DNA of 23,983 nucleotides from a virus. The stretch spans positions 1-23,983 of IMG/VR virus record IMGVR_UViG_3300017753_001335; one strand, 5' to 3'. The position numbers and the translations under genes are program-made. Below are positions 1 to 23,983 of the stretch, one piece after another; within the stretch, counting starts at the first letter, position 1; each line of letters starts with the position of its first letter. The notes under the pieces were generated by a model that saw only the letters and a program-made list of their open reading frames with translations, searched no databases and was not told where the DNA came from.

Positions 1-808
1 ATTTGTCAAGCATAAAACTACATATTTTATCAAATATTAATTTATGACCCTTTGCGTTAGGGTGACCATCAATAATCCAACCTTCATTTGCTAGATTATC
101 ATCATTAGAATTTAAAACATACTCTTTCCAGTTGTCATTCCAGTATCTTCCTATTAACTCGTAAAAATTACCCCCACCCAACTCTTTTGTACCAGGAAAC
201 ATAAAGAAGTTTTCTTCGTTTAACTTATCAAATAACTCATGATTCATGTATTCTTTTAATATAGTAAGGGGTTGTTTTCTGTCTTTTTTACTACCTTCTG
301 GATAAGGTCTAACTGAAAATGCTTGTATATTCTTTATTTCTTTATGTTTTAATAAATTATCTATTGCTACAGAATAGTTTAGAAACCTATCTATCATGCA
401 TTTAGTGTCGAACAATTTGTCATCTGTAAATAAAGTATTATATTTTTCTGAAGATTTATATGTTTCATTTTCAAGTGTTAAATTGATGTGAATAGAATCT
501 CTACCACCAGTATTAGTAAATGGTAAATCTACCCTATCGAACTCTGACCAACAAATAATGGCAAACTCTATATCATCATTTGTATTTAAAGCATACAATG
601 TATTATCAAATATTTGTTGATTACCAGCGCCATTAAAAGATTGATTAATAATATCTAAATTTAATTTTTCACCTAGATATTCAAACCAATATTTGTATTC
701 AGATATTTCCCACAAATAAGAATTTCGTTTTGTTGCTTTAACTTTTCTTGCTTGTTGTAAATATCTAGAGCAAAAACTATCACCAACAACTAATAATTTA
801 CCAGACAT
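1..808 (-). CDS. SGNH-hydrolase-like protein, 3'-truncated by the window edge
   Basis: The reading frame opens at an ATG at 808 and stays open for 269 codons to the left edge, so the C-terminus is missing. The N-terminus carries a GDS motif (residues 9-11, after a short hydrophobic strand LLVV) and the visible C-terminal part carries DGHPN (D247, H249). A GDS block near the N-terminus plus a late Asp/His pair is the pattern of SGNH/GDSL hydrolases, which act as esterases or deacetylases on lipids and glycans. The start overlaps the carbamoyltransferase stop by 11 bp (ATGTCTGGTAA), so the two are probably translated together and may both serve a glycan or small-molecule modification. The gene probably ends within a few codons of the edge, because a TTGACA promoter box sits at 4-9. 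The family assignment is motif-based and the substrate is unknown. Confidence 0.7.
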   Translation of the reverse strand, partial: MSGKLLVVGDSFCSRYLQQARKVKATKRNSYLWEISEYKYWFEYLGEKLNLDIINQSFNGAGNQQIFDNTLYALNTNDDIEFAIICWSEFDRVDLPFTNTGGRDSIHINLTLENETYKSSEKYNTLFTDDKLFDTKCMIDRFLNYSVAIDNLLKHKEIKNIQAFSVRPYPEGSKKDRKQPLTILKEYMNHELFDKLNEENFFMFPGTKELGGGNFYELIGRYWNDNWKEYVLNSNDDNLANEGWIIDGHPNAKGHKLIFDKICSFMLDK

Positions 809-2105
809 TCACACCATACTTCTCTGTAAACTTACTTGCATCTTTCTCTGTGTTTACCATAGGTTTACCTTTTATATTAAGTGATGTATTCAACAACATA
901 GGAACTTTAGTTCTTTCATAAAACTCTTCTAGTATGGGTCTTATTACTGACTTACAATCTTTCTCAACAACTTGAACTCTTGCAGTATTGTCAACATGTG
1001 TTACTGATTTATAATCGTGTTTTGCTTTTGCTACAAACTGCATATAACGATTCATAGGTCCTTCAAAATACTCATCTGCATATTCTTCTAAAATTGCAGG
1101 TGCAAAAGGTCTAAACTTTTTTCTTCTTTTAATTGTGTTAACAGTATCTTTGATATCATATCTAGGGTCACCTAATAAAGAACGATTACCTAATGCTCTA
1201 GGTCCAAATTCTGCTCTACCATTTGCTACACCTACTATTTTATTTTCTAATATATCATCAACAACTTCTTTAGGATTTATGTATCTGCTAATATCATAAC
1301 CAAGATATGGATGTTCCCAATTAATCTTACCTTGTTTTAATGCTGATGCACCTAAAGAACTACCTGCATCACCAGGCGATGGCATAATCCAAATGTTCTT
1401 ACCCTTTATCTTACTATTAGCAACACAATTTAAAGCACAACCACCCATAAGTATCAAGTTTTTCTTCGGGCACATCTTTACTAATTTTAATAATTCATCT
1501 TCATATAGTTTTTGTATTGAGGCGGCGATGTCAACAGGTTCACCTTTAAGTGATTTTATACCTCTATGATTGTTTTCATATAAGAGATACTCATAATTAT
1601 ATTTGGGTTCACCAAATGCTGACATACCCATAACAATATATTCTTCTTCGTTAGGTTTAAATCCTAAATATTGTGTTACTGCTGAATATAATAACCCTAA
1701 AGAATATGGGTACGACCAAGACCTAATCTTGTTTAGATTGTCCCATATCGTAATTGTTTCCCATTCACCAATAGCATCTATAACTAATATATTACAATCT
1801 TCGAATGGTGCAGTATAATAACCTGCGGCGGCGTGAGATAAATGATGTGAGTAGTAGTTATCATATTTAAATCTAGTTTTTTCCCACGACTGACCTGCTA
1901 AAAGTCTTCTAATATTTTTTTTAAATGGTTTTTCATAATAAACCATGTTGTCACATTCATACATATCTAATAGGTCACCTGGTACCCACCTATCATTTTT
2001 ATTACCAGTGTATCTTTCTGATTCTGATGCAAACAATATTTCACCGTCTTCTACATAACAGACAGATGAATTATGAAACCCTTCTGAAATTCCTAATGTA
2101 ATCAT
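798..2105 (-). CDS. NodU/CmcH-family carbamoyltransferase
   Basis: Members transfer a carbamoyl group from carbamoyl phosphate, through a carbamoyl-adenylate, to a hydroxyl of a sugar or other small molecule. Family hallmarks are visible: the N-terminal LGIS..FHNSSV strand, the metal-binding SHHLSHAAAGY block, VIDAIGEWET, GGCALNCVANS, PSPGDAGSSLGA, and the C-terminal YrdC-like part with EFGPRALGNRSLL, KFRPFAPA and TSLNIKGKP. At 435 aa it is shorter than many cellular members (often 550 or more), with a compact middle and a C-terminus that ends soon after the conserved NTEKDA block. I chose the ATG at 2105, not 2111: it overlaps the preceding small gene's stop as TAATG and has GAGG eight bases upstream. 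The ATG at 2111 leaves only two bases after the GAGG. Carbamoyltransferases are recurrent in marine T4-like phages; the acceptor here is unknown. Confidence 0.9.
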   Translation of the reverse strand: MITLGISEGFHNSSVCYVEDGEILFASESERYTGNKNDRWVPGDLLDMYECDNMVYYEKPFKKNIRRLLAGQSWEKTRFKYDNYYSHHLSHAAAGYYTAPFEDCNILVIDAIGEWETITIWDNLNKIRSWSYPYSLGLLYSAVTQYLGFKPNEEEYIVMGMSAFGEPKYNYEYLLYENNHRGIKSLKGEPVDIAASIQKLYEDELLKLVKMCPKKNLILMGGCALNCVANSKIKGKNIWIMPSPGDAGSSLGASALKQGKINWEHPYLGYDISRYINPKEVVDDILENKIVGVANGRAEFGPRALGNRSLLGDPRYDIKDTVNTIKRRKKFRPFAPAILEEYADEYFEGPMNRYMQFVAKAKHDYKSVTHVDNTARVQVVEKDCKSVIRPILEEFYERTKVPMLLNTSLNIKGKPMVNTEKDASKFTEKYGVNVW

Positions 2106-2254
2106 TACCATTGCCTCAGTGTATTAGATATAATTGCAATACAAGTAATAATGTGCAATACAATCCAGCAAGTTCTAATTATTGCCACTTTATCTGCTTT
2201 ATTATCTTCGTCAAATGCTTTTGTGCCTATTGCTTTGCACCAATATTTCCACAT
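2105..2254 (-). CDS. 49-aa small membrane protein
   Basis: A short open frame starting MWKYWCKAIG and ending NTLRQW fills the apparent gap between the MT-A70 gene and the carbamoyltransferase. It has a hydrophilic start with several Trp and Lys, a charged stretch (DEDNKADK, about residues 15-22), then a hydrophobic segment at about 23-44 (AIIRTCWIVLHIITCIAII) long enough to cross a membrane once. Its TAA overlaps the next ATG (TAATG), typical of co-translated phage genes, which argues that it is real. No good Shine-Dalgarno is seen; the start lies one base after the stop of the preceding 22-codon frame, so re-initiation is plausible. From memory, very small proteins with a similar N-terminus occur in other marine T4-like phages; that would need a search. 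Function unknown. Confidence 0.6.
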   Translation of the reverse strand: MWKYWCKAIGTKAFDEDNKADKVAIIRTCWIVLHIITCIAIISNTLRQW

Positions 2255-5361: not shown

Positions 5362-5390
5362 AATATAACTTATTTTAGATTAATTGTCAA
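5362..5390 (-). promoter_or_regulatory. Early-type (sigma70-like) promoter for gp43
   Basis: TTGACA at 5385-5390, a 17-bp spacer, and TATATT at 5362-5367. The base before the -35 box is C, as in every other copy in this window. Only five bases separate the -10 box from the gp43 ATG at 5356, so transcription would begin at or next to the start codon. Confidence 0.8.
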
Positions 5391-6768
5391 GTTCGTAATG
5401 GGTAGTTAATACATATTTTCTTTGTGGTGATACAATTACATTTAATGTATTCATAACTGAACGGTCTAATAGTATTGGTGTTCTGTCTTCTCTATTGTCA
5501 ATTGTGAATAATAAATCTTTATACATTGTACCTAAAAACTCCATATCTAATTTTATAACATATCTTGTTTCATCATAATCTCTTAAACCACCAACTTTGA
5601 TATCTTCTTTTCTTATGATTTGAGATACAACTGTTTTGCCCATTAAAGTCCAAGCAATTGTTTTACCTTTTACCTTTGTTTTATCTGCATGTATTACAGA
5701 CATACCTGAGTTACCCGTATCAAACTTTGCAACAATTTCACCAAAAGGTTTTATACTTACAATTTCTTTGTAACCACAAGCATCAGGTACTTTAATTCTA
5801 TTTCTTTTTTTACCAAAAAATTCTATAACTTCTTTAGATATATTTTGACCACTTGCCTTTTCTATACCTTCTGTGCCAGGTGATGAATTTACTTCTAATA
5901 CAAAGGGTGGTAACTTCTCTCTATTTTTACTAGGTATAAAATCAACAGCAGTCCATAAACCACCAACTGCTTTCGCCGACTTTAAACATTCTGCAATTTC
6001 TAGTTCTGTTAAATCTATCTTTACTGGTTCTGAACCTTGAGATACATTACTTCTAAAATCACCGTCAATAACAGGTCTTTTCATATTTGCTAAAACTTTA
6101 CCACCCATTACTAAAACTCTAACATCATACTCATTAGGTATAAACTCTTGTAATAATAAATCAGCATCTTCATCTTGTTTATATAAAACTTGACATAAAC
6201 TATCAAGACCTTTTTCTGACTCTACAAATAAAACACCAACACCTTTACTACCTCGTAATGTTTTTAGTATTATAGGATATTTTGTATCTAACTTTTCGAA
6301 TGCTTCTTTTGATTTTTCTGGGTCTGTAATCAATGCCGTATTAGGTTGTGTAATACCAAAGTCAGCAAGTCTTAGATATGTTCTGTACTTGTCAGCACAC
6401 ACACTAATACATTGTCTAGAATTAACAACACAGATACCATCTTTCTCTAACATAGAAACAATGTCCATCCAACTATCTTTTCGTGTGATAGAACCTCTTA
6501 TGATAGCAACTGTATCAGATGTAATTTCAAAACCTTTTGGGTCTTTTTTATTATGAAGTCTTCTTACATTATCTTCAAAGGTAACATACCCACCAGATAA
6601 CTTATAAAGATAGAAAGGTAGTTTTAACTTTTCTGCTTCCTGTTTTAATCTATCAGCAGTATGAAATGTTTTTGCTTCTTCTGGTTCATCTGTAATAATT
6701 AAAACTTTACAAAAAGTTCTTTCTTTCTTCTCTTCATTTAAGAATTCTTTAAATTTGGCAACTTCCAT
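5380..6768 (-). CDS. RimK-like ATP-grasp ligase fused to a RimB-like retropepsin-fold domain
   Basis: A 462-aa two-domain protein. Residues about 20-320 are a RimK-type ATP-grasp ligase: NSRQ..SVCADKYRTYLRL (115-133), the glycine-rich ILKTLRGSKGVGV (167-179), LLQEFIPNEYDVRV (205-218), GDFRSNVSQG (236-245) and the Mg-binding EVNSSPGTEGIE (292-303). RimK enzymes add glutamate to protein C-termini such as ribosomal protein S6. Residues about 335-458 resemble the RimB/'ATP-dependent zinc protease' (retropepsin-like) family: AKFDTGNSGMS (347-357) holds the candidate aspartate D350, and TPILLDRSVMN (430-440) matches the LLGR block. So ligase and putative hydrolase sit in one chain. The ATG overlaps the regA stop (TAATG), placing the gene at the end of the clamp/clamp-loader unit. 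Marine T4-like phages often have an ATP-grasp gene here; the target protein is unknown. Confidence 0.88.
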   Translation of the reverse strand: MEVAKFKEFLNEEKKERTFCKVLIITDEPEEAKTFHTADRLKQEAEKLKLPFYLYKLSGGYVTFEDNVRRLHNKKDPKGFEITSDTVAIIRGSITRKDSWMDIVSMLEKDGICVVNSRQCISVCADKYRTYLRLADFGITQPNTALITDPEKSKEAFEKLDTKYPIILKTLRGSKGVGVLFVESEKGLDSLCQVLYKQDEDADLLLQEFIPNEYDVRVLVMGGKVLANMKRPVIDGDFRSNVSQGSEPVKIDLTELEIAECLKSAKAVGGLWTAVDFIPSKNREKLPPFVLEVNSSPGTEGIEKASGQNISKEVIEFFGKKRNRIKVPDACGYKEIVSIKPFGEIVAKFDTGNSGMSVIHADKTKVKGKTIAWTLMGKTVVSQIIRKEDIKVGGLRDYDETRYVIKLDMEFLGTMYKDLLFTIDNREDRTPILLDRSVMNTLNVIVSPQRKYVLTTHYELDN

Positions 6769-7202
6769 TACTCACCATTGTTTTGTGTATTCTTACCTAT
6801 ATTATATTTAGCAGATAAGTTCCATTCATTTTTTTCTTTGAAGTGTAATATTTTTATTTGACTTAATGGTGCTTTATCTTTTATATTATTCTTATCAACA
6901 ATGTCAATTAGTTCCCAATCTTCTAATAAAACTGCTATTGTGTTTCTTCTTTCAATATCATTCTTTACTAGACTTGCAGGTTTACCATCTAAAGCAAACA
7001 GTTCTTTAAAATGTGTAATAAAGTATTTACCTTGTTTATGTAATATATGACAAGACTGAAAAAGAGTTCTATCTTTTCTACTTGCAACACCTATTCTAGT
7101 TAATGTTTCTCTTATCTTTAGGAAATCATCTGGTTGTTTTATGGTAACTTCCAACATTTGTTCTGGCGACCATTTAATCGCTTCGTCATTAGTATCAATC
7201 AT
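6768..7202 (-). CDS. regA: RegA translational repressor
   Basis: RegA is the RNA-binding protein that, in T4, represses translation of many early mRNAs including its own and those for the clamp and clamp loader. The match to T4 RegA is plain along the whole length: KPDDFLKIRETLTRIGVA-like (residues 22-41), FQSCHILHKQGKYFITHFKE (48-67), NDIERRNTIAVLLEDWELI (80-98) and the end KNEWNLSAKYNIG. At 144 aa it has about 16 extra residues before the homologous start and a short Asn-rich tail. The start overlaps the gp62 stop as ATGA, and gene order 45-44-62-regA-43 is that of T4, with one insertion (the ATP-grasp gene) before 43. If it acts on leaders as in T4, the leaderless genes here would need to be recognised differently. 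Confidence 0.96.
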   Translation of the reverse strand: MIDTNDEAIKWSPEQMLEVTIKQPDDFLKIRETLTRIGVASRKDRTLFQSCHILHKQGKYFITHFKELFALDGKPASLVKNDIERRNTIAVLLEDWELIDIVDKNNIKDKAPLSQIKILHFKEKNEWNLSAKYNIGKNTQNNGE

Positions 7203-7591
7203 TTCTTCCCACCTTTATCTAACTTTTTCTTAATAGTTTCAATTTGTTCATCAGATAATATATTTAGAGCGGTCTTTGCCTTATCATTACTATAACCATA
7301 ATACTCTTTAATAATATCTAAATCTTTCAATTTAGTTTGTGATATCCATTTACCACCAAACCTTTTTTTCTTTCTTACACTATTTATGAAAAAATCAAAT
7401 TGAAGTTTTTTAGGAAGAAAATGATACCCATTCATTTCGTTTGCCTGCATCAAAGTATCATAATGCATTGACAAACATTTATTAATGATAAAGGGTGGGT
7501 ACTTCTTTTCCCAAGTCGTATCGTCTGTGTCTAGTAAGTTTTTCTTTGTTAAATTAATTGCATTGAGATAGTCTTTTAACTCATAACTCAT
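7199..7591 (-). CDS. 62: Clamp loader small subunit (gp62)
   Basis: In T4, one gp62 subunit joins four gp44 ATPases to load the gp45 clamp. This 130-aa protein is recognised by weak similarity (starts MSYELKDYLNAINLTKKNLLD, includes YPPFIINKCLSMHYDTL and NGYHFLPKKLQFDFFIN at about 31-70) and strongly by its place between gp44 and regA. The KR-rich segment RKKKRFGGKW at about 74-83 is shared by relatives. It is shorter than T4 gp62 (187 aa). Both boundaries are ATGA overlaps with neighbours (gp44 upstream, regA downstream), so the stoichiometry is likely set by translational coupling. The TGA stop used here is also evidence that TGA is a normal stop codon in this phage. Confidence 0.92.
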   Translation of the reverse strand: MSYELKDYLNAINLTKKNLLDTDDTTWEKKYPPFIINKCLSMHYDTLMQANEMNGYHFLPKKLQFDFFINSVRKKKRFGGKWISQTKLKDLDIIKEYYGYSNDKAKTALNILSDEQIETIKKKLDKGGKK

Positions 7592-8532
7592 TTAAACCTA
7601 CAATTCGCCATAATCTCGGTTAAACATGCAACCATATTTATTTCTTGGTCAGCAACAAAGGCAGATTTGTATTGATATCCTGCAAGTGTTAGTATTGCTT
7701 GTGGTACAGAATTATCAGCAAGATACTTACTCAAAGAATCATAAACAGTTCTAAATAAATGAGATGGTTCTTTATCTAGGTTTTGTACAACCCACTTTCT
7801 CATATCATTAAATCTTTTTTCTTTTAAAGTGTTCATCAATTCTTTAATGTTAACTTCAGACATACTGAAGAGAATACCACTATCTATTTTACCACTAACA
7901 GAATATCTTTGCAATTCATTTATCATTCTTCTAATATCAGGAAAGAACTTCATAATAAATTCTGCTAATACTTTCTTATCATATTCTACTTTGTTTTCGT
8001 CTAGAATATCACAAAAACTTTTTAGTAATTTGCCAGCAACTATTCTTCTTTGACCATTAACAATTTTAAAATCTACGGTTGTGCAACGACTGTGTAATGC
8101 AGGTAGTATTTTAGTTTTGTAATTGCAAGTAAAAATAAATCTACAATTATTGTGAAATGTTTCTATAAAGTTTCTTAATGCAGGTTGAACAGATTCAGGA
8201 TTCATATAATCTGCTTCATCTATTATAACAACTTTATGTTTTGAATTGCCATCTAACGATACAGTTGATGCGAAGTCTTTAATCTTATTTCTTAATGTAT
8301 CAATCTGACGACCTTCATCAGAACCATTAATAATAATATAATCTGCACCTATTTCTTCACACAATGCTCTTGCAACTGTGGTCTTACCTGTGCCAGATGT
8401 ACCTGATAATAGTAAGTTTGGTATCTCTTTACCAGAGGCAAACTTTTTCATTGTAGTCATTATATCTTTTGGTAAGATACAATCAACTATCTTTCTAGGT
8501 CTATATCTTTCGACCCATAAAAAATCTTCCAT
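7588..8532 (-). CDS. 44: Clamp loader ATPase subunit (gp44)
   Basis: AAA+ ATPase of the sliding-clamp loader, related to RFC small subunits. Visible motifs: N-terminal FLWVERYRPRKI, Walker A GTSGTGKT (residues 44-51), Walker B VVIIDEAD at about 104-111, sensor-1 FIFTCNY, and the clamp-loader SRC motif in ALHSRCTT. The frame also extends to an upstream TTG at 8547, but I prefer the ATG at 8532: it has GGAG nine bases upstream and gives the usual N-terminus immediately before the WVERYRP box. It starts 18 bp after the gp45 stop and ends in an ATGA overlap with gp62. All ATPase residues look intact. Confidence 0.97.
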   Translation of the reverse strand: MEDFLWVERYRPRKIVDCILPKDIMTTMKKFASGKEIPNLLLSGTSGTGKTTVARALCEEIGADYIIINGSDEGRQIDTLRNKIKDFASTVSLDGNSKHKVVIIDEADYMNPESVQPALRNFIETFHNNCRFIFTCNYKTKILPALHSRCTTVDFKIVNGQRRIVAGKLLKSFCDILDENKVEYDKKVLAEFIMKFFPDIRRMINELQRYSVSGKIDSGILFSMSEVNIKELMNTLKEKRFNDMRKWVVQNLDKEPSHLFRTVYDSLSKYLADNSVPQAILTLAGYQYKSAFVADQEINMVACLTEIMANCRFK

Positions 8533-8550
8533 AATATAAAACTCCAAACA

Positions 8551-9219
8551 TTATTTAAAAACACTCTCTTTTTCTACTGCAATCCAATATTGTATTGGTC
8601 TATTTCTATTAATGAAATGAGCAAGACCTTTTTGTGAGATTGCAACATCATAATCGTCTTCTATTTGTTTGAAGTTTTCCATTCTAAAATGAATAGAAAA
8701 TTCTTTTTCTGTTTCACCTAGTTCTACTGAATATTCATTTGATGATTTATTCTTTTTATCAGATGCAGTAATAGTCATTTTAGAACCATTGCCTGTTAAT
8801 ATAATATCAGGTAGTGCCAGTGAATTAGCACCTTTCATTAGTCTTTCAAATTTTTCTTTTGTGAATTTAAAAGTCACATATCTATCTGGTAAGTCAATTG
8901 TCTTTGAAGGGGTAACTAATACACATGGATCTGCAAAGAAATATTTAATTGATTGACCATACTTCTCATCTGCAATAGTAACATATTGACCACCATTAAA
9001 CTTTAATTTAGGTTGTTCAAACAGTTCTACTGAACGCAAGAACTCTGGAAGTTTATAGATACCAAACTCTTGTTCAAATTGTTCATCAACAGATGCTTCT
9101 GCTAGAACATTCTTCAATGTAGATATTGTACGAATTGTTTTACCTGGTTTTACTAAAATGTTCTCATTAATCTCAGAAAAGTTTTTGAGAACAGAAAGTG
9201 TTTGGTTACTTACCTTCAT
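8551..9219 (-). CDS. 45: Sliding clamp (gp45)
   Basis: Processivity clamp; as a trimer it tethers gp43 to DNA and, in T4, also activates late transcription by binding gp55. The N-terminus MKVSNQTLSVLKNFSEIN aligns well with T4 gp45 (MKLSKDTTALLKNF...). Later parts are more diverged (DPCVLVTPSKTIDLP, DIILTGNGSKMTITA), as is normal for phage clamps; at 222 aa the length matches T4 (228 aa). The frame opens at an ATG at 9234, but the ATG at 9219 fits the family start and has GGAG five bases upstream. That start lies 14 bp inside the preceding DUF3310-like gene, so the two are coupled. Confidence 0.95.
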   Translation of the reverse strand: MKVSNQTLSVLKNFSEINENILVKPGKTIRTISTLKNVLAEASVDEQFEQEFGIYKLPEFLRSVELFEQPKLKFNGGQYVTIADEKYGQSIKYFFADPCVLVTPSKTIDLPDRYVTFKFTKEKFERLMKGANSLALPDIILTGNGSKMTITASDKKNKSSNEYSVELGETEKEFSIHFRMENFKQIEDDYDVAISQKGLAHFINRNRPIQYWIAVEKESVFK

Positions 9220-9478
9220 CTTCACTCCTATCATAATTTATTAATAATGTAATGTAGTGCATCGCTTTAAATAAATCCATTTTATTCTTGCCATGTTTTT
9301 TACCATAACGACACAAGTATTTGATAGCATTTGCTTGAGCAAATTCACGACCAATATTCAGTTCTTTAAATATATCTTGAATTTGAAAACCACTACCACT
9401 ATCAGAGTAGTGTTGATTATATGTAGATTTCACATAATCAATAAGTTCATATAATATTTTATCTTCGTTATATTTCAT
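9206..9478 (-). CDS. DUF3310-like small protein
   Basis: A 90-aa protein of the kind annotated as DUF3310 ('SaV-like') in many phages, whose role is not established. The recognisable region is NIGREFAQANAIKYLCRYGKK (about residues 46-66) followed by DLFKAMHYITLL, matching the family pattern of GNAIKY..R.GKK then DL.KA..Y. The frame could be opened by a GTG at 9490, but that codon lies within the promoter -10 box (TATAGTG); the ATG at 9478 is therefore the start. The promoter leaves only about 3-4 bases of leader. The gene leads the clamp, clamp loader, regA unit and overlaps gp45 by 14 bp, which suggests a role linked to replication or nucleotides, by context only. Confidence 0.75.
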   Translation of the reverse strand: MKYNEDKILYELIDYVKSTYNQHYSDSGSGFQIQDIFKELNIGREFAQANAIKYLCRYGKKHGKNKMDLFKAMHYITLLINYDRSEDEGK

Positions 9479-13271: not shown

Positions 13272-13680
13272 ATACATTCCCTGGCAATGTTCCTTTTGCC
13301 CAACTTGTTTTACCTATTAATTTCATCTTCATACTATCATAGAATTTGTTTGCTGTCAAGTTATCTTCTCTTACAGATAGATAAACATTGTTAGGACAAT
13401 AGTCAAAGAACCTATTTAATACATCTCTTGCATTACCCTTACCTTGTGTAGCATTTGCTATCTGATGTAATACAGTATCACCTTTTTCTAATTGCACATT
13501 ACCTACTTTTTGTTTTCTTTTTGTATGGTGAAAAGTTATAAGAACATTATTATCAAGAATCAGTTGTTTATTTTCAATCATTCTTTTCATGTAATCTGTT
13601 CTTACATGAGGAAACCATTGTTTATGTTTGTAAAATATTTCTTTTACTTTTTCAAAATCTTTAGAACATGCTAATTTCAT
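13237..13680 (-). CDS. GNAT-family acetyltransferase
   Basis: A 147-aa protein with the acetyl-CoA binding signature QGKGNA (79-84, the Q/RxxGxG/A motif A) after the strand VLHQIAN, and the C-terminal motif B YLSVREDNLTANKFYDSMKM (100-119), where N107, A110 and Y114 are the usual positions. The ending GKTSWAKGTLPGNVYV is unusual for GNATs. Members acetylate amines of proteins, antibiotics or small molecules; RimI-like enzymes acetylate ribosomal proteins. The substrate is unknown. It overlaps both neighbours (20 bp with the hydroxylase upstream, 35 bp with the methyltransferase downstream) and so belongs to the gp55-to-kdsA run. Confidence 0.75.
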   Translation of the reverse strand: MKLACSKDFEKVKEIFYKHKQWFPHVRTDYMKRMIENKQLILDNNVLITFHHTKRKQKVGNVQLEKGDTVLHQIANATQGKGNARDVLNRFFDYCPNNVYLSVREDNLTANKFYDSMKMKLIGKTSWAKGTLPGNVYVRNKFNRLSI

Positions 13681-14275
13681 TTATCATACCCTCAAGTTTC
13701 TCATTGATAAAACAGTCAATAACTAAATGTAATCTGTCAAAATCTGCATCATTTGTTACAGCGTGTGGTTTTGATACATCTGTATAATAATATCTACCTT
13801 GTTGTAAGTTACATTCTATTTTAGTTTTATCTTCCCACAAATACATTTTAACCTTTTCATTTGTTTTTAGGGGTGCGTGTATTCTGATAATATTACCATT
13901 CTTTATTTCTTTATCTACTTTATCTGTATGTTTTGATATCTTAGTACCTGCTCTCAATCTCATAATTCTAATTCGTTCAAAGTTTGCAGGTATATGCCAC
14001 AGTATTTGTTTTATAGGTGCACATTCTGGTTGTTCATATAGATGAGTATACATTAAACCTTGACCTTGTATATTACTATCTAATACACCTGGTTTTAAAA
14101 TGTTACTAATGTCATCACTATAACCTCTTATTGATATTGCTTGCCATTGTTCTTTTTTATTAAACTTAGTTTTTACTGCTGAGTAATTTAATTTGTTTAA
14201 ATAGTTTACCATTTCGTCTAATGGTTCATCAGCGAATGATGGTAAGTCTAAAAGTTTAAATGTCGCTCTTGTCAT
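13661..14275 (-). CDS. Aspartyl/asparaginyl beta-hydroxylase-like 2OG oxygenase
   Basis: A 204-aa protein resembling the Asp_Arg_Hydrox family, which hydroxylates Asp, Asn or Arg side chains using Fe(II) and 2-oxoglutarate. The core is IRIMRLRAGTKISKHTDKVD (H116, D118), RIHAPLKTN (H133), then GRYYYTDVSKPHAVTNDADFDRLHLVID-like spacing with H171 and R181 as distal Fe ligand and 2OG-binding residue. The order H-x-D, basic middle residue, H, R is intact, so activity is plausible. The first 95 residues are a variable cap. It lies between deformylase (20 bp overlap) and GNAT (20 bp overlap), three consecutive genes able to modify proteins. Confidence 0.82.
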   Translation of the reverse strand: MTRATFKLLDLPSFADEPLDEMVNYLNKLNYSAVKTKFNKKEQWQAISIRGYSDDISNILKPGVLDSNIQGQGLMYTHLYEQPECAPIKQILWHIPANFERIRIMRLRAGTKISKHTDKVDKEIKNGNIIRIHAPLKTNEKVKMYLWEDKTKIECNLQQGRYYYTDVSKPHAVTNDADFDRLHLVIDCFINEKLEGMINEISMF

Positions 14276-22675: not shown

Positions 22676-23983
22676 TTACATTAAGTTCGCAACTTGAACT
22701 CTTCTGTAGTATCTATTACTGTTGGCAGCGCCTGCACCATCGATAACAGCATCAGAACTAGAAGACGCCTCAGCAAATGGATTTGCCTGTAGACCATATC
22801 TAGTTTTGAAACCAATCTTTGGTTGGAAATTGTCTTGACCAACTGCTCTTACCATTTGTAATGGTACATATGGACAGTAGAATAATCCACTATCATATGG
22901 TGAAGAACCTTTATACCCAACAACAAAGTATTGAGCAGCAGCGTTATTTGCTGAGTACGGGTCAATATAAACTTTATATCTACCATTTAGTACCCCAGCG
23001 AAAGTATTGCCAGTGTCGTCAACTTGTAAGTTGTTGTTTAATGCAGGTGTGTAATCTAATACGCCTGCCATTTGTAAAGCAGAAGCAACATCAGATGAAC
23101 ATATTAATATGTTACCTTTACCTCTACGAGTTCTTTGAGCAATAACATTTGCTTCTCTTTCAACTTGGAACATAAGTCCTTTAAATCTCTCAACTGACCA
23201 TCTACCGTTTGAGTCTGTATCTAAATCAAAGATACCAGCAGTAGTTGTGTTGATAGCATTTACAGAACCAATTGCAGTTGAACCAGAATCAGATGCCCCA
23301 ATTTCAGCATTGATGTAAATAGTTCTTACAACTTCTCTGTTAATTTCTGCAAGTATTTCAGCAGATAGGATATTTGCAAGTTCTGTTTCAGCATCTAAAC
23401 CATGGATTGCCTTTAAGTCTTGTGCAAGTTCCATTGTATATTCTGCCTTTAATGCCCTACTTTTAGCAGTCACAGTTGACTTCTCGATTGAGAATGCCAT
23501 TTCTGCGAATGTATTGTCAGCAGATCCCCCTAATGCCTCAGCGGCAGCAGTTGACATACCAGTACCTTTAGTATATGTTCCTGCAGGATTATCGTTCAAT
23601 AATTTAGGGTTTGTGCCAGCGTGGGCAGTTCATGAGAACCCGTCAACTGAAGAACCTTCTTTGTTTCTACCAGAAAAATCTGTATCTGCTTCATCAAATA
23701 GTGCTTCTGTTCCAGATTGACTATCGTATCTTGCTCTCATTGCAAAAATAAGACCGGTTGGACCAGTCATAGGTTGAACACCACATATATCATATGCGAT
23801 TAAGTTAGGCATTGCTCTTCTTACTAACGAAATTAAAATTGGGTCCCAATTGTCTATACTAGAACCTGTTGCGTTAGCAGGAGTAACACTTGGAGATGCC
23901 TCACTAAGGAACGCTCTATCTTCTCTAATTGAGCGTTCTTGGTTTTCCAAGATAACTGAAGTCACAGCACGCTTGTAAGTATC
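22676..23983 (-). CDS. 23: Major capsid protein gp23, 5'-partial, with an in-frame TGA
   Basis: The HK97-fold capsid precursor of T4-like phages. Hallmarks are VTSVILENQERSIREDRAFL, WDPILISLVRRAMPNLIAYDICGVQPMTGPTGLIFAM-like sequence (23650-23890), EMAFSIEKSTVTAKSRALKAEYTMELAQDLK and LLAEINREVVRTIYINAEIG equivalents, DYTPALNNNLQVDDTGNTFAGVL, and the end YYRRVQVANLM. The frame runs open past the right edge, so some N-terminal residues are missing; the GTG at 23965 is not the start. An in-frame TGA at 23630-23632 breaks the frame, with the two halves (23633-23983 and 22676-23629) staying in register across it. The protein would otherwise be continuous (GFS-stop-TAHAGTN), most simply TGG (Trp) to TGA. 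TGA is a normal stop elsewhere here, so this is a nonsense mutation, a sequence error or a recoded stop. Confidence 0.93.
23630..23632 (-). other. In-frame TGA codon in gp23
   Basis: The codon sits in the context TCA TGA ACT. Reading on gives 11 sense codons and then continues the family sequence (NDNPAGTYTKG). There is no insertion or deletion, only one nonsense codon in otherwise intact coding sequence. Confidence 0.9.

What the first reader, a model, noticed from the sequence alone, without database searches (positions are those of the whole stretch)
5380..6768. RimK-type ligase and RimB-like retropepsin domain in one phage protein
Residues 20-320 carry a full ATP-grasp set, and residues 335-458 carry a DTG aspartate (D350) and an LLDR block typical of the RimB-like 'ATP-dependent zinc protease' family. 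In Pseudomonas, RimK adds glutamate residues to ribosomal protein S6 and RimB removes them, as separate proteins. A fusion would place synthesis and trimming of a tail on one polypeptide, expressed with the replication genes. The domain identity is from motifs; the fusion itself is directly visible as one frame.
Basis: partly seen in the sequence, partly recalled or inferred. Interest (0 to 1): 0.78.

Follow-up and report, generated by a model that had tools for sequence, protein, structure and literature searches.

The report
Phage glutamate-tail writer and eraser fusion
A marine phage gene really does join a RimK-type enzyme that adds glutamates to a RimB-type protease that trims them; this fusion was first reported in 2008, but its protease half is now identifiable and it also starts with a short tag resembling the one phage T4 uses to load proteins into its head, so it may be injected into the host.

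Summary
The fusion is real. The minus-strand ORF 5380-6768 (462 aa) is a RimK-family ATP-grasp ligase followed by a RimB/Rlo-type retropepsin-like domain with Asp350 in FDTG. A model of the C-domain has as nearest solved structures Legionella Lpg0085 and Pseudomonas RloA/RloA2 (Z 14-15), well above HIV protease (about 9). All ATP-grasp residues and DTG are invariant in 115/115 related viral contigs. The gene lies directly after regA wherever that can be judged (111/111).

It is not a new architecture. Monier et al. 2008 (PMC2530865) described this marine phage RimK next to regA, several copies carrying C-terminal DUF785 (=PF05618), and noted cellular RimK-DUF785 fusions in both orders. I found both orders too.

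What looks unreported, as far as I could search, is a conserved N-terminal tag, KF-x-x-[FY]-[IL]-x-E. A profile of it ranks T4's head-packaged internal proteins 4th, 5th and 11th of 2268 candidate T4 starts. It ends in a pattern like the prohead-protease site of this phage's own capsid protein. A distant Yersinia phage homologue was found in virions by mass spectrometry, though it lacks the tag.

Best reading: a packaged, injected polyglutamylation writer/eraser. Catalysis, target and packaging remain untested.

The parts
5380..6768 (-). 462-aa RimK-RimB-type fusion protein (whole ORF)
   Evidence: full-length homologues in IMG/VR, Pelagibacter phage Mosig and Yersinia phages YerA41/GN1
6733..6768 (-). 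residues 1-12, capsid-targeting-like tag MEVAKFKEFLNE with predicted prohead-protease cut after E12
   Evidence: low-confidence floppy segment in the model (pLDDT <50 at 1-15); pN/pS 0.30 against 0.57 for the next six residues
6397..6711 (-). residues 20-124, pre-ATP-grasp domain; R91 aligns with glutamate-chain-binding R64 of Pseudomonas RimK
   Evidence: no PF18030 Rimk_N match
5818..6396 (-). residues 125-317, RimK ATP-grasp domain (K127, K169, R217, D276, E292, N294)
   Evidence: best fold match RimK 7qys (TM 0.86 by target length)
5893..5895 (-). E292 codon, predicted Mg2+ ligand
   Evidence: invariant 115/115
5404..5784 (-). residues 329-455, RimB/Rlo-type retropepsin-like domain (PF05618)
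5719..5721 (-). D350 codon, predicted catalytic aspartate in FDTG
   Evidence: invariant 115/115 and in the distant fusions
5563..5565 (-). R402 codon (E-x-R motif shared with cellular RimB domains)
5461..5463 (-). R436 codon (LLDR, the LLGR position of RimB)
   Evidence: not kept in YerA41 (VNL)
6768..7202 (-). regA translational repressor; its stop overlaps the fusion's start (TAATG)
   Evidence: adjacent upstream in 111 of 115 loci, the other four at contig edges
2867..5356 (-). T4-type DNA polymerase gp43, downstream
   Evidence: downstream in 97 of 115 loci
7199..9234 (-). clamp loader gp62, gp44 and sliding clamp gp45 (replication cluster)
23897..23914 (-). AFLSEA, proposed prohead-protease site of this phage's major capsid protein (same [IL]-x-E pattern as the tag)

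Best explanation
A bifunctional polyglutamylation enzyme of T4-like pelagiphages. The ATP-grasp half activates a carboxylate with ATP and adds glutamate, most likely to the C-terminus of a host protein such as ribosomal protein S6, or builds poly-alpha-glutamate. The C-terminal RimB-type aspartic protease half, which brings one Asp per chain and so needs two chains to form an active site, trims those glutamates and may also tune the ligase. The protein is made with the replication genes, directly after regA. A 12-residue N-terminal tag of the T4 capsid-targeting type loads it into the prohead, where the prohead protease clips it after LNE12. It would then be injected with the DNA and act on the next host at once, as T4 Alt does. 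Shown by computation: domains, fold, conserved residues, synteny, tag conservation and the tag's likeness to T4 internal proteins. Inferred: catalysis (about 0.65), packaging and injection (about 0.5), S6 as the main target (about 0.35).
For: RimK family match over the curated cut-off, all ATP-grasp residues invariant in 115/115, model fits RimK 7qys. C-domain: phage-only profile against cellular RimB domains 95.9% probability, E=5e-9; its two best solved structures of 177,635 are RloA and RloA2, though weak (E=0.05 and 0.45); structure Z 14-15 to the RimB/Rlo family. Literature: RimB trims RimK-made glutamate tails and stimulates RimK (PMC11957791); Rlo proteases cleave polyglutamate (PMC12239564). 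Tag: present in the 53 distinct N-termini examined, F6/F9/[IL]10/E12 kept while the next residues drift, also in the K-only relatives Melnitz and L123; top scorer in the window and in Mosig, and T4 ipIII, ipII, ipI rank 4, 5, 11 of 2268 T4 starts. T4 Alt is cut at ITE-6 and LTE-619 (PMC5694885). The CTS can carry almost any protein into the head and is then removed (PMC7697877). The YerA41 homologue is starred as particle-associated in the proteome study and annotated as structural protein (PMC7354516).
Against: No activity or virion data for this phage group. YerA41, the one member seen in virions, lacks the tag. One tag-like N-terminus per genome is not itself beyond chance (background 7 per 39,689 residues); the case rests on conservation and on likeness to T4 internal proteins, and two T4 sequences not known to me as packaged (gp61.1 and an unannotated 76-aa ORF) score even higher. 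S6-ligase equivalog cut-off not met; residues S7/R8 that hold the glutamate chain in Pseudomonas RimK are not conserved. Melnitz keeps the ligase without any PF05618 domain, so trimming is dispensable there.
Confidence: 0.5

Rival explanations
1. The same writer/eraser, but acting only where it is made, during the replication phase; the N-terminal segment is a docking or oligomerisation helix and the protein is not packaged.
For: Lies in the middle-gene replication cluster; RimK tetramers use N-terminal loops for contacts (PMC10092738); no virion data for this phage group.
Against: The tag sits before the domain, is separated by a fast-drifting linker, ends in a prohead-protease-like site and resembles T4 internal-protein tags more than nearly all T4 starts do.
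Confidence: 0.3
2. The C-terminal domain is mainly a built-in activator of the ligase, and the product is free poly-alpha-glutamate rather than a tail on a protein.
For: Pseudomonas RimB stimulates RimK ATPase and poly-glutamate synthesis (PMC11957791).
Against: DTG and the RimB arginines are invariant, which a purely structural domain would not need.
Confidence: 0.15
3. The ligase joins another small molecule or amino acid (the public annotation says glutathione synthetase), so the pair has nothing to do with glutamate tails.
For: ATP-grasp enzymes vary in substrate; Mosig annotation; PF02955 GSH-S_ATP also matches.
Against: The RimK-family model is over its cut-off at 165 bits, while glutathione synthase models give 57-65 bits of the 272-299 required; R91, R217 and N294 match three RimK glutamate-chain contacts; fusion to a family with polyglutamate-cleaving members.
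Confidence: 0.1
4. The fusion is a chance reading or an assembly joint.
For: Pfam score of the C-domain in this copy is below the gathering cut-off.
Against: Full-length in independent contigs and three isolated phages, purifying selection on both halves (pN/pS 0.29 and 0.23).
Confidence: 0.01

Closest known systems
Marine phage RimK with C-terminal DUF785 next to regA (Monier, Claverie and Ogata 2008, PMC2530865)
   Same: Same gene family, same neighbours (regA, PolB, MT-A70 methyltransferase), same domain order; the window is a member.
   Different: In 2008 DUF785 had no function and the N-terminal tag is not mentioned in the passages read; hosts were unknown, now a Pelagibacter isolate (Mosig) carries it.
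Pseudomonas RimK + RimB (rim operon; PMC10092738, PMC11957791)
   Same: ATP-grasp glutamate ligase paired with a DTG retropepsin-like protease.
   Different: Two separate proteins there; one chain here with the protease at the C-terminus; S7/R8 glutamate-chain contacts not conserved; no evidence for S6 as target.
Cellular RimK-PF05618 fusions: protease-first in Caulobacterales/Algimonas/Crocinitomicaceae (L152, L155, L166, L193, L194); ligase-first in haloarchaea (L119, L120)
   Same: Both domains on one chain.
   Different: The protease-first ones branch with canonical RimK; the haloarchaeal ones sit on a separate long branch; no phage-type tag.
Pseudomonas Rlo proteases and Legionella Lpg0085 (9g58, 9g59, 2pma)
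   Same: Fold and motif of the C-domain (Z 14.1-15.1).
   Different: Stand-alone; Rlo proteins are periplasmic.
T4 internal proteins IPI-IPIII and Alt
   Same: N-terminal tag (IPs) and [IL]-x-E cut pattern; Alt is an injected enzyme that modifies host proteins.
   Different: Unrelated mature proteins; packaging of the window protein is not shown.

Membership tests
RimK-family alpha-L-glutamate ligase (TIGR00768) | Family model over its curated cut-off | tested here: met
   165.4 bits against 143.4
RimK-family alpha-L-glutamate ligase (TIGR00768) | ATP-grasp catalytic and metal residues | tested here: met
   K127, K169, D276, E292, N294 in 115/115
RimK-family alpha-L-glutamate ligase (TIGR00768) | Residues that hold the glutamate chain in Pseudomonas RimK (S7, R8, S14, R64, S68, R189, N262) | tested here: inconclusive
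   R64, R189, N262 equivalents kept (R91, R217, N294); S7/R8 region differs
Ribosomal protein S6--L-glutamate ligase (NF007764, RimK sensu stricto) | Equivalog model over its curated cut-off | tested here: not met
   98.4 bits against 331
Ribosomal protein S6--L-glutamate ligase (NF007764, RimK sensu stricto) | PF18030 Rimk_N pre-ATP-grasp domain | tested here: not met
   No match at E<=0.1, whereas two cellular fusions match at 1.5e-32 or better
Ribosomal protein S6--L-glutamate ligase (NF007764, RimK sensu stricto) | Adds glutamate to S6 | not testable with these tools
   needs an enzyme assay
RimB/Rlo retropepsin-like proteases (PF05618) | Pfam model over its gathering score | tested here: inconclusive
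   19 bits in the window copy (cut-off 27); 28.0 in Mosig, 29.0 in YerA41
RimB/Rlo retropepsin-like proteases (PF05618) | DTG/DSG aspartate motif and E-x-R / LLxR arginines | tested here: met
   Aligned with cellular RimB domains; 115/115 for D350 and R402; 114 of 115 for R436, one copy truncated
RimB/Rlo retropepsin-like proteases (PF05618) | Retropepsin fold nearest to RloA/RloA2/Lpg0085 | tested here: met
   Z 15.1, 14.6, 14.1, next about 9; phage-only profile 95.9% to cellular RimB
RimB/Rlo retropepsin-like proteases (PF05618) | Cleaves polyglutamate as a dimer | not testable with these tools
   needs an assay
T4-type capsid-targeted internal protein | N-terminal capsid-targeting sequence | tested here: met
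   Tag profile ranks ipIII, ipII, ipI 4th, 5th, 11th of 2268 T4 starts; this is likeness of sequence, not function
T4-type capsid-targeted internal protein | [IL]-x-E prohead-protease site after the tag | tested here: met
   [IL]10-x-E12 in every copy with a complete N-terminus, same pattern as AFLSE in the window's capsid protein and ITE-6/LTE-619 in T4 Alt
T4-type capsid-targeted internal protein | Present in the mature virion | not tested
   Only the distant YerA41 homologue, which lacks the tag, is reported in virions

The most novel reading that the evidence does not exclude
T4-like pelagiphages carry a glutamate-tail writer and eraser inside the virion and inject it, so that host ribosomes or other proteins are polyglutamylated from the first minute of infection: a packaged post-translational modification enzyme of a new chemistry beside T4's injected ADP-ribosyltransferase Alt.
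Probability: 0.4. Interest if true: 0.78.

Novelty: new member of a known kind. Interest (0 to 1): 0.5.

Why it matters
The fusion turns a phage gene known only as RimK plus a domain of unknown function into a testable one-chain system for adding and trimming glutamate tails, found in phages of the abundant SAR11 bacteria. If the tag works as in T4, it is an injected enzyme and makes host translation or another host protein a target at the very start of infection, a question that virion mass spectrometry can settle directly.

Tried and rejected
Chance or assembly artefact: rejected by full-length recurrence and purifying selection. Glutathione synthetase, as annotated in Mosig: rejected on model scores. 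Novelty of the fusion: rejected after reading PMC2530865 and finding cellular fusions. L124-L126 as bacterial genes: doubtful, since the L126 contig carries a T4-type portal gene. A direct search with the YerA41 protein in viral contigs found nothing. Melnitz or the two cyanophages having the protease as a separate gene: no PF05618 match in any of the three whole records. Whether the Pelagibacter host has its own rimK, rimB or a glutamate-ended S6 could not be checked with the scans left. A stricter tag profile without substitution scoring placed the T4 internal proteins lower (ranks 14, 15, 20 of 2268), so the ranking depends somewhat on scoring. Of the papers found in the held open-access library, PMC2530865 is the only one seen to describe the phage fusion; subscription papers were not searchable.

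Full report
WHAT IS THERE. The finding's coordinates hold a single minus-strand ORF of 462 aa (the plus-strand reading is full of stops). Pfam places the RimK ATP-grasp domain at 125-317 (E=3.3e-36) and a sub-threshold PF05618 'Zn_protease' at 332-454 (19 bits, cut-off 27). The same domain in close and distant homologues reaches the cut-off (Mosig 28.0, YerA41 29.0 bits). NCBIfam assigns the RimK alpha-L-glutamate ligase family over its cut-off, but the S6-ligase equivalog is not met (98 of 331 bits).

RELATIVES. In isolated phages the full fusion occurs in Pelagibacter phage Mosig (70% identity, annotated glutathione synthetase) and in Yersinia phages YerA41 and GN1 (37%). Two scans of IMG/VR gave 115 distinct loci with the fusion (91 distinct sequences; one copy is cut by its contig end). 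These were chosen as best matches to a full-length query, so the sample is biased towards fused copies. The gene follows regA directly in 111 loci, the other four being contig edges, and gp43 lies downstream in 97; regA's stop overlaps its start (TAATG). The window's polymerase is 75% identical to Mosig's, so a pelagiphage is likely. Methylophilales phage Melnitz and contig L123 carry the ligase without the protease domain. In a tree of the ligase domain the phage sequences form one supported group (98/96) that includes the huge-phage and YerA41 fusions, with Melnitz and L123 nested inside; the simplest reading is that the fusion is old in this group and the protease was lost there. Some inner branches are weak and several rows are long, so this is tentative.

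THE C-TERMINAL DOMAIN. A profile of phage sequences only aligns with cellular RimB-type domains at 95.9% probability, E=5e-9, and its two best hits among 177,635 PDB sequences are RloA and RloA2, weak as single hits (E=0.05, 0.45). AlphaFold2 gives mean pLDDT 83 for the domain. Its nearest solved structures are Lpg0085 (Z 15.1), RloA (14.6) and RloA2 (14.1), then a gap to retroviral proteases at about 9 (Foldseek agrees). The domain's alignment held five cellular RimB-type rows, which may have helped; the full-length model had only phage-type rows over that region, gave the same all-beta domain, and its search of viral models listed proteins named 'ATP-dependant zinc protease'. D350, T351, G352, E400 and R402 are unchanged in 115 of 115 loci and R436 in all untruncated ones.

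THE LIGASE DOMAIN. The model fits RimK 7qys with TM 0.86 by target length. All ATP-grasp residues are invariant. Of the residues that hold the glutamate chain in Pseudomonas RimK (PMC10092738), R64, R189 and N262 have equivalents (R91, R217, N294) but S7/R8 do not. The chemistry is probably glutamate ligation; the acceptor may differ from S6.

THE N-TERMINAL TAG. The 53 distinct N-termini examined read M-x(2-4)-[KNPQ]-F-x-x-[FY]-[IL]-x-E-x, nearly all with A, E, D or Q last. F6 is kept in 114 of 115 (one gap), E12 in 115. The next six residues drift about twice as fast (pN/pS 0.57 against 0.30). Melnitz and L123 share the tag, while two cyanophage RimKs of another branch do not. T4's internal proteins II and III begin MKTYQEFIAEA and I begins MKTFKEF. 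A substitution-scored profile of the phage tags ranks ipIII, ipII and ipI 4th, 5th and 11th of 2268 candidate starts in 159 kb of T4; a stricter profile gives 14th, 15th, 20th. In the window and in Mosig the fusion is the top scorer. The tag ends in [IL]-x-E, the pattern cut by prohead proteases: T4 Alt is cut at ITE-6 and LTE-619 (PMC5694885), and this phage's capsid protein has AFLSE-A. The T4 capsid-targeting sequence can carry almost any protein into the head and is then removed (PMC7697877; PMC3012670). The YerA41 homologue, listed as ribosomal protein modification protein, is starred as particle-associated (PMC7354516), but it lacks the tag. One tag-like start per genome is within chance (7 matches per 39,689 residues); conservation and the T4 ranking carry the case.

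WHAT IS KNOWN. Monier et al. 2008 (PMC2530865) found this phage rimK beside regA in over a hundred ocean contigs, several with C-terminal DUF785 (PF05618), and noted DUF785 at the N-terminus of Synechococcus RimK and at the C-terminus in Halobacteria. I found protease-first fusions in Caulobacterales, Algimonas and Crocinitomicaceae and ligase-first ones in haloarchaea. So the fusion is known; what is added is the identification of DUF785 here as a RimB/Rlo-type retropepsin, and the tag.

MECHANISM. RimB trims tails that RimK adds and also stimulates RimK (PMC11957791); Rlo relatives cleave polyglutamate (PMC12239564). The most likely reading is a one-chain writer and eraser of glutamate tails. 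Because the protease half brings one Asp, two chains must pair to cut. The tag suggests packaging and injection. Catalysis, target and packaging are inferred and untested.

Noticed in passing
window 23630-23632 (-): In-frame TGA within the major capsid protein gene, where Mosig has serine; sequencing error or a broken copy in this contig.
   Followed up: partly
L223 19130 (-) and L224 14210 (+) (phage T4 19130 and 114210): T4 gp61.1 (MKTFKEFIKED) and a 76-aa ORF (MLLEFKQFLYEA) score above the known internal proteins with the tag profile; possible further head-targeted T4 proteins.
   Followed up: no
L213-L220 (contig of L126, 400 kb, binned as Erysipelotrichaceae): Contig with a T4-type portal gene, probably a huge phage; about 16 of 136 ORFs start with MKxLxxYI/L-like sequences, perhaps its own head-targeting tag. 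It also carries the RimK-protease fusion.
   Followed up: partly
L001 548-757 (Mosig_00016): Mosig encodes a 30S ribosomal protein S21, a second possible handle on host ribosomes.
   Followed up: no
L207 2683-3342: A 636-kb uncultured phage encodes a stand-alone PF05618 retropepsin-like protein (219 aa, DSG motif).
   Followed up: partly
L132 1776-4979: Bacterial cluster of three RimK-like ATP-grasp genes in a row, the middle one fused to a C-terminal PF05618 domain.
   Followed up: no
window 13661-14275 (-): Aspartyl/asparaginyl beta-hydroxylase-like protein (PF05118), one of several oxygenase-type genes in this phage group.
   Followed up: no
window 798-2111 (-): Carbamoyltransferase (PF16861/PF02543) of unknown role in the phage.
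   Followed up: no
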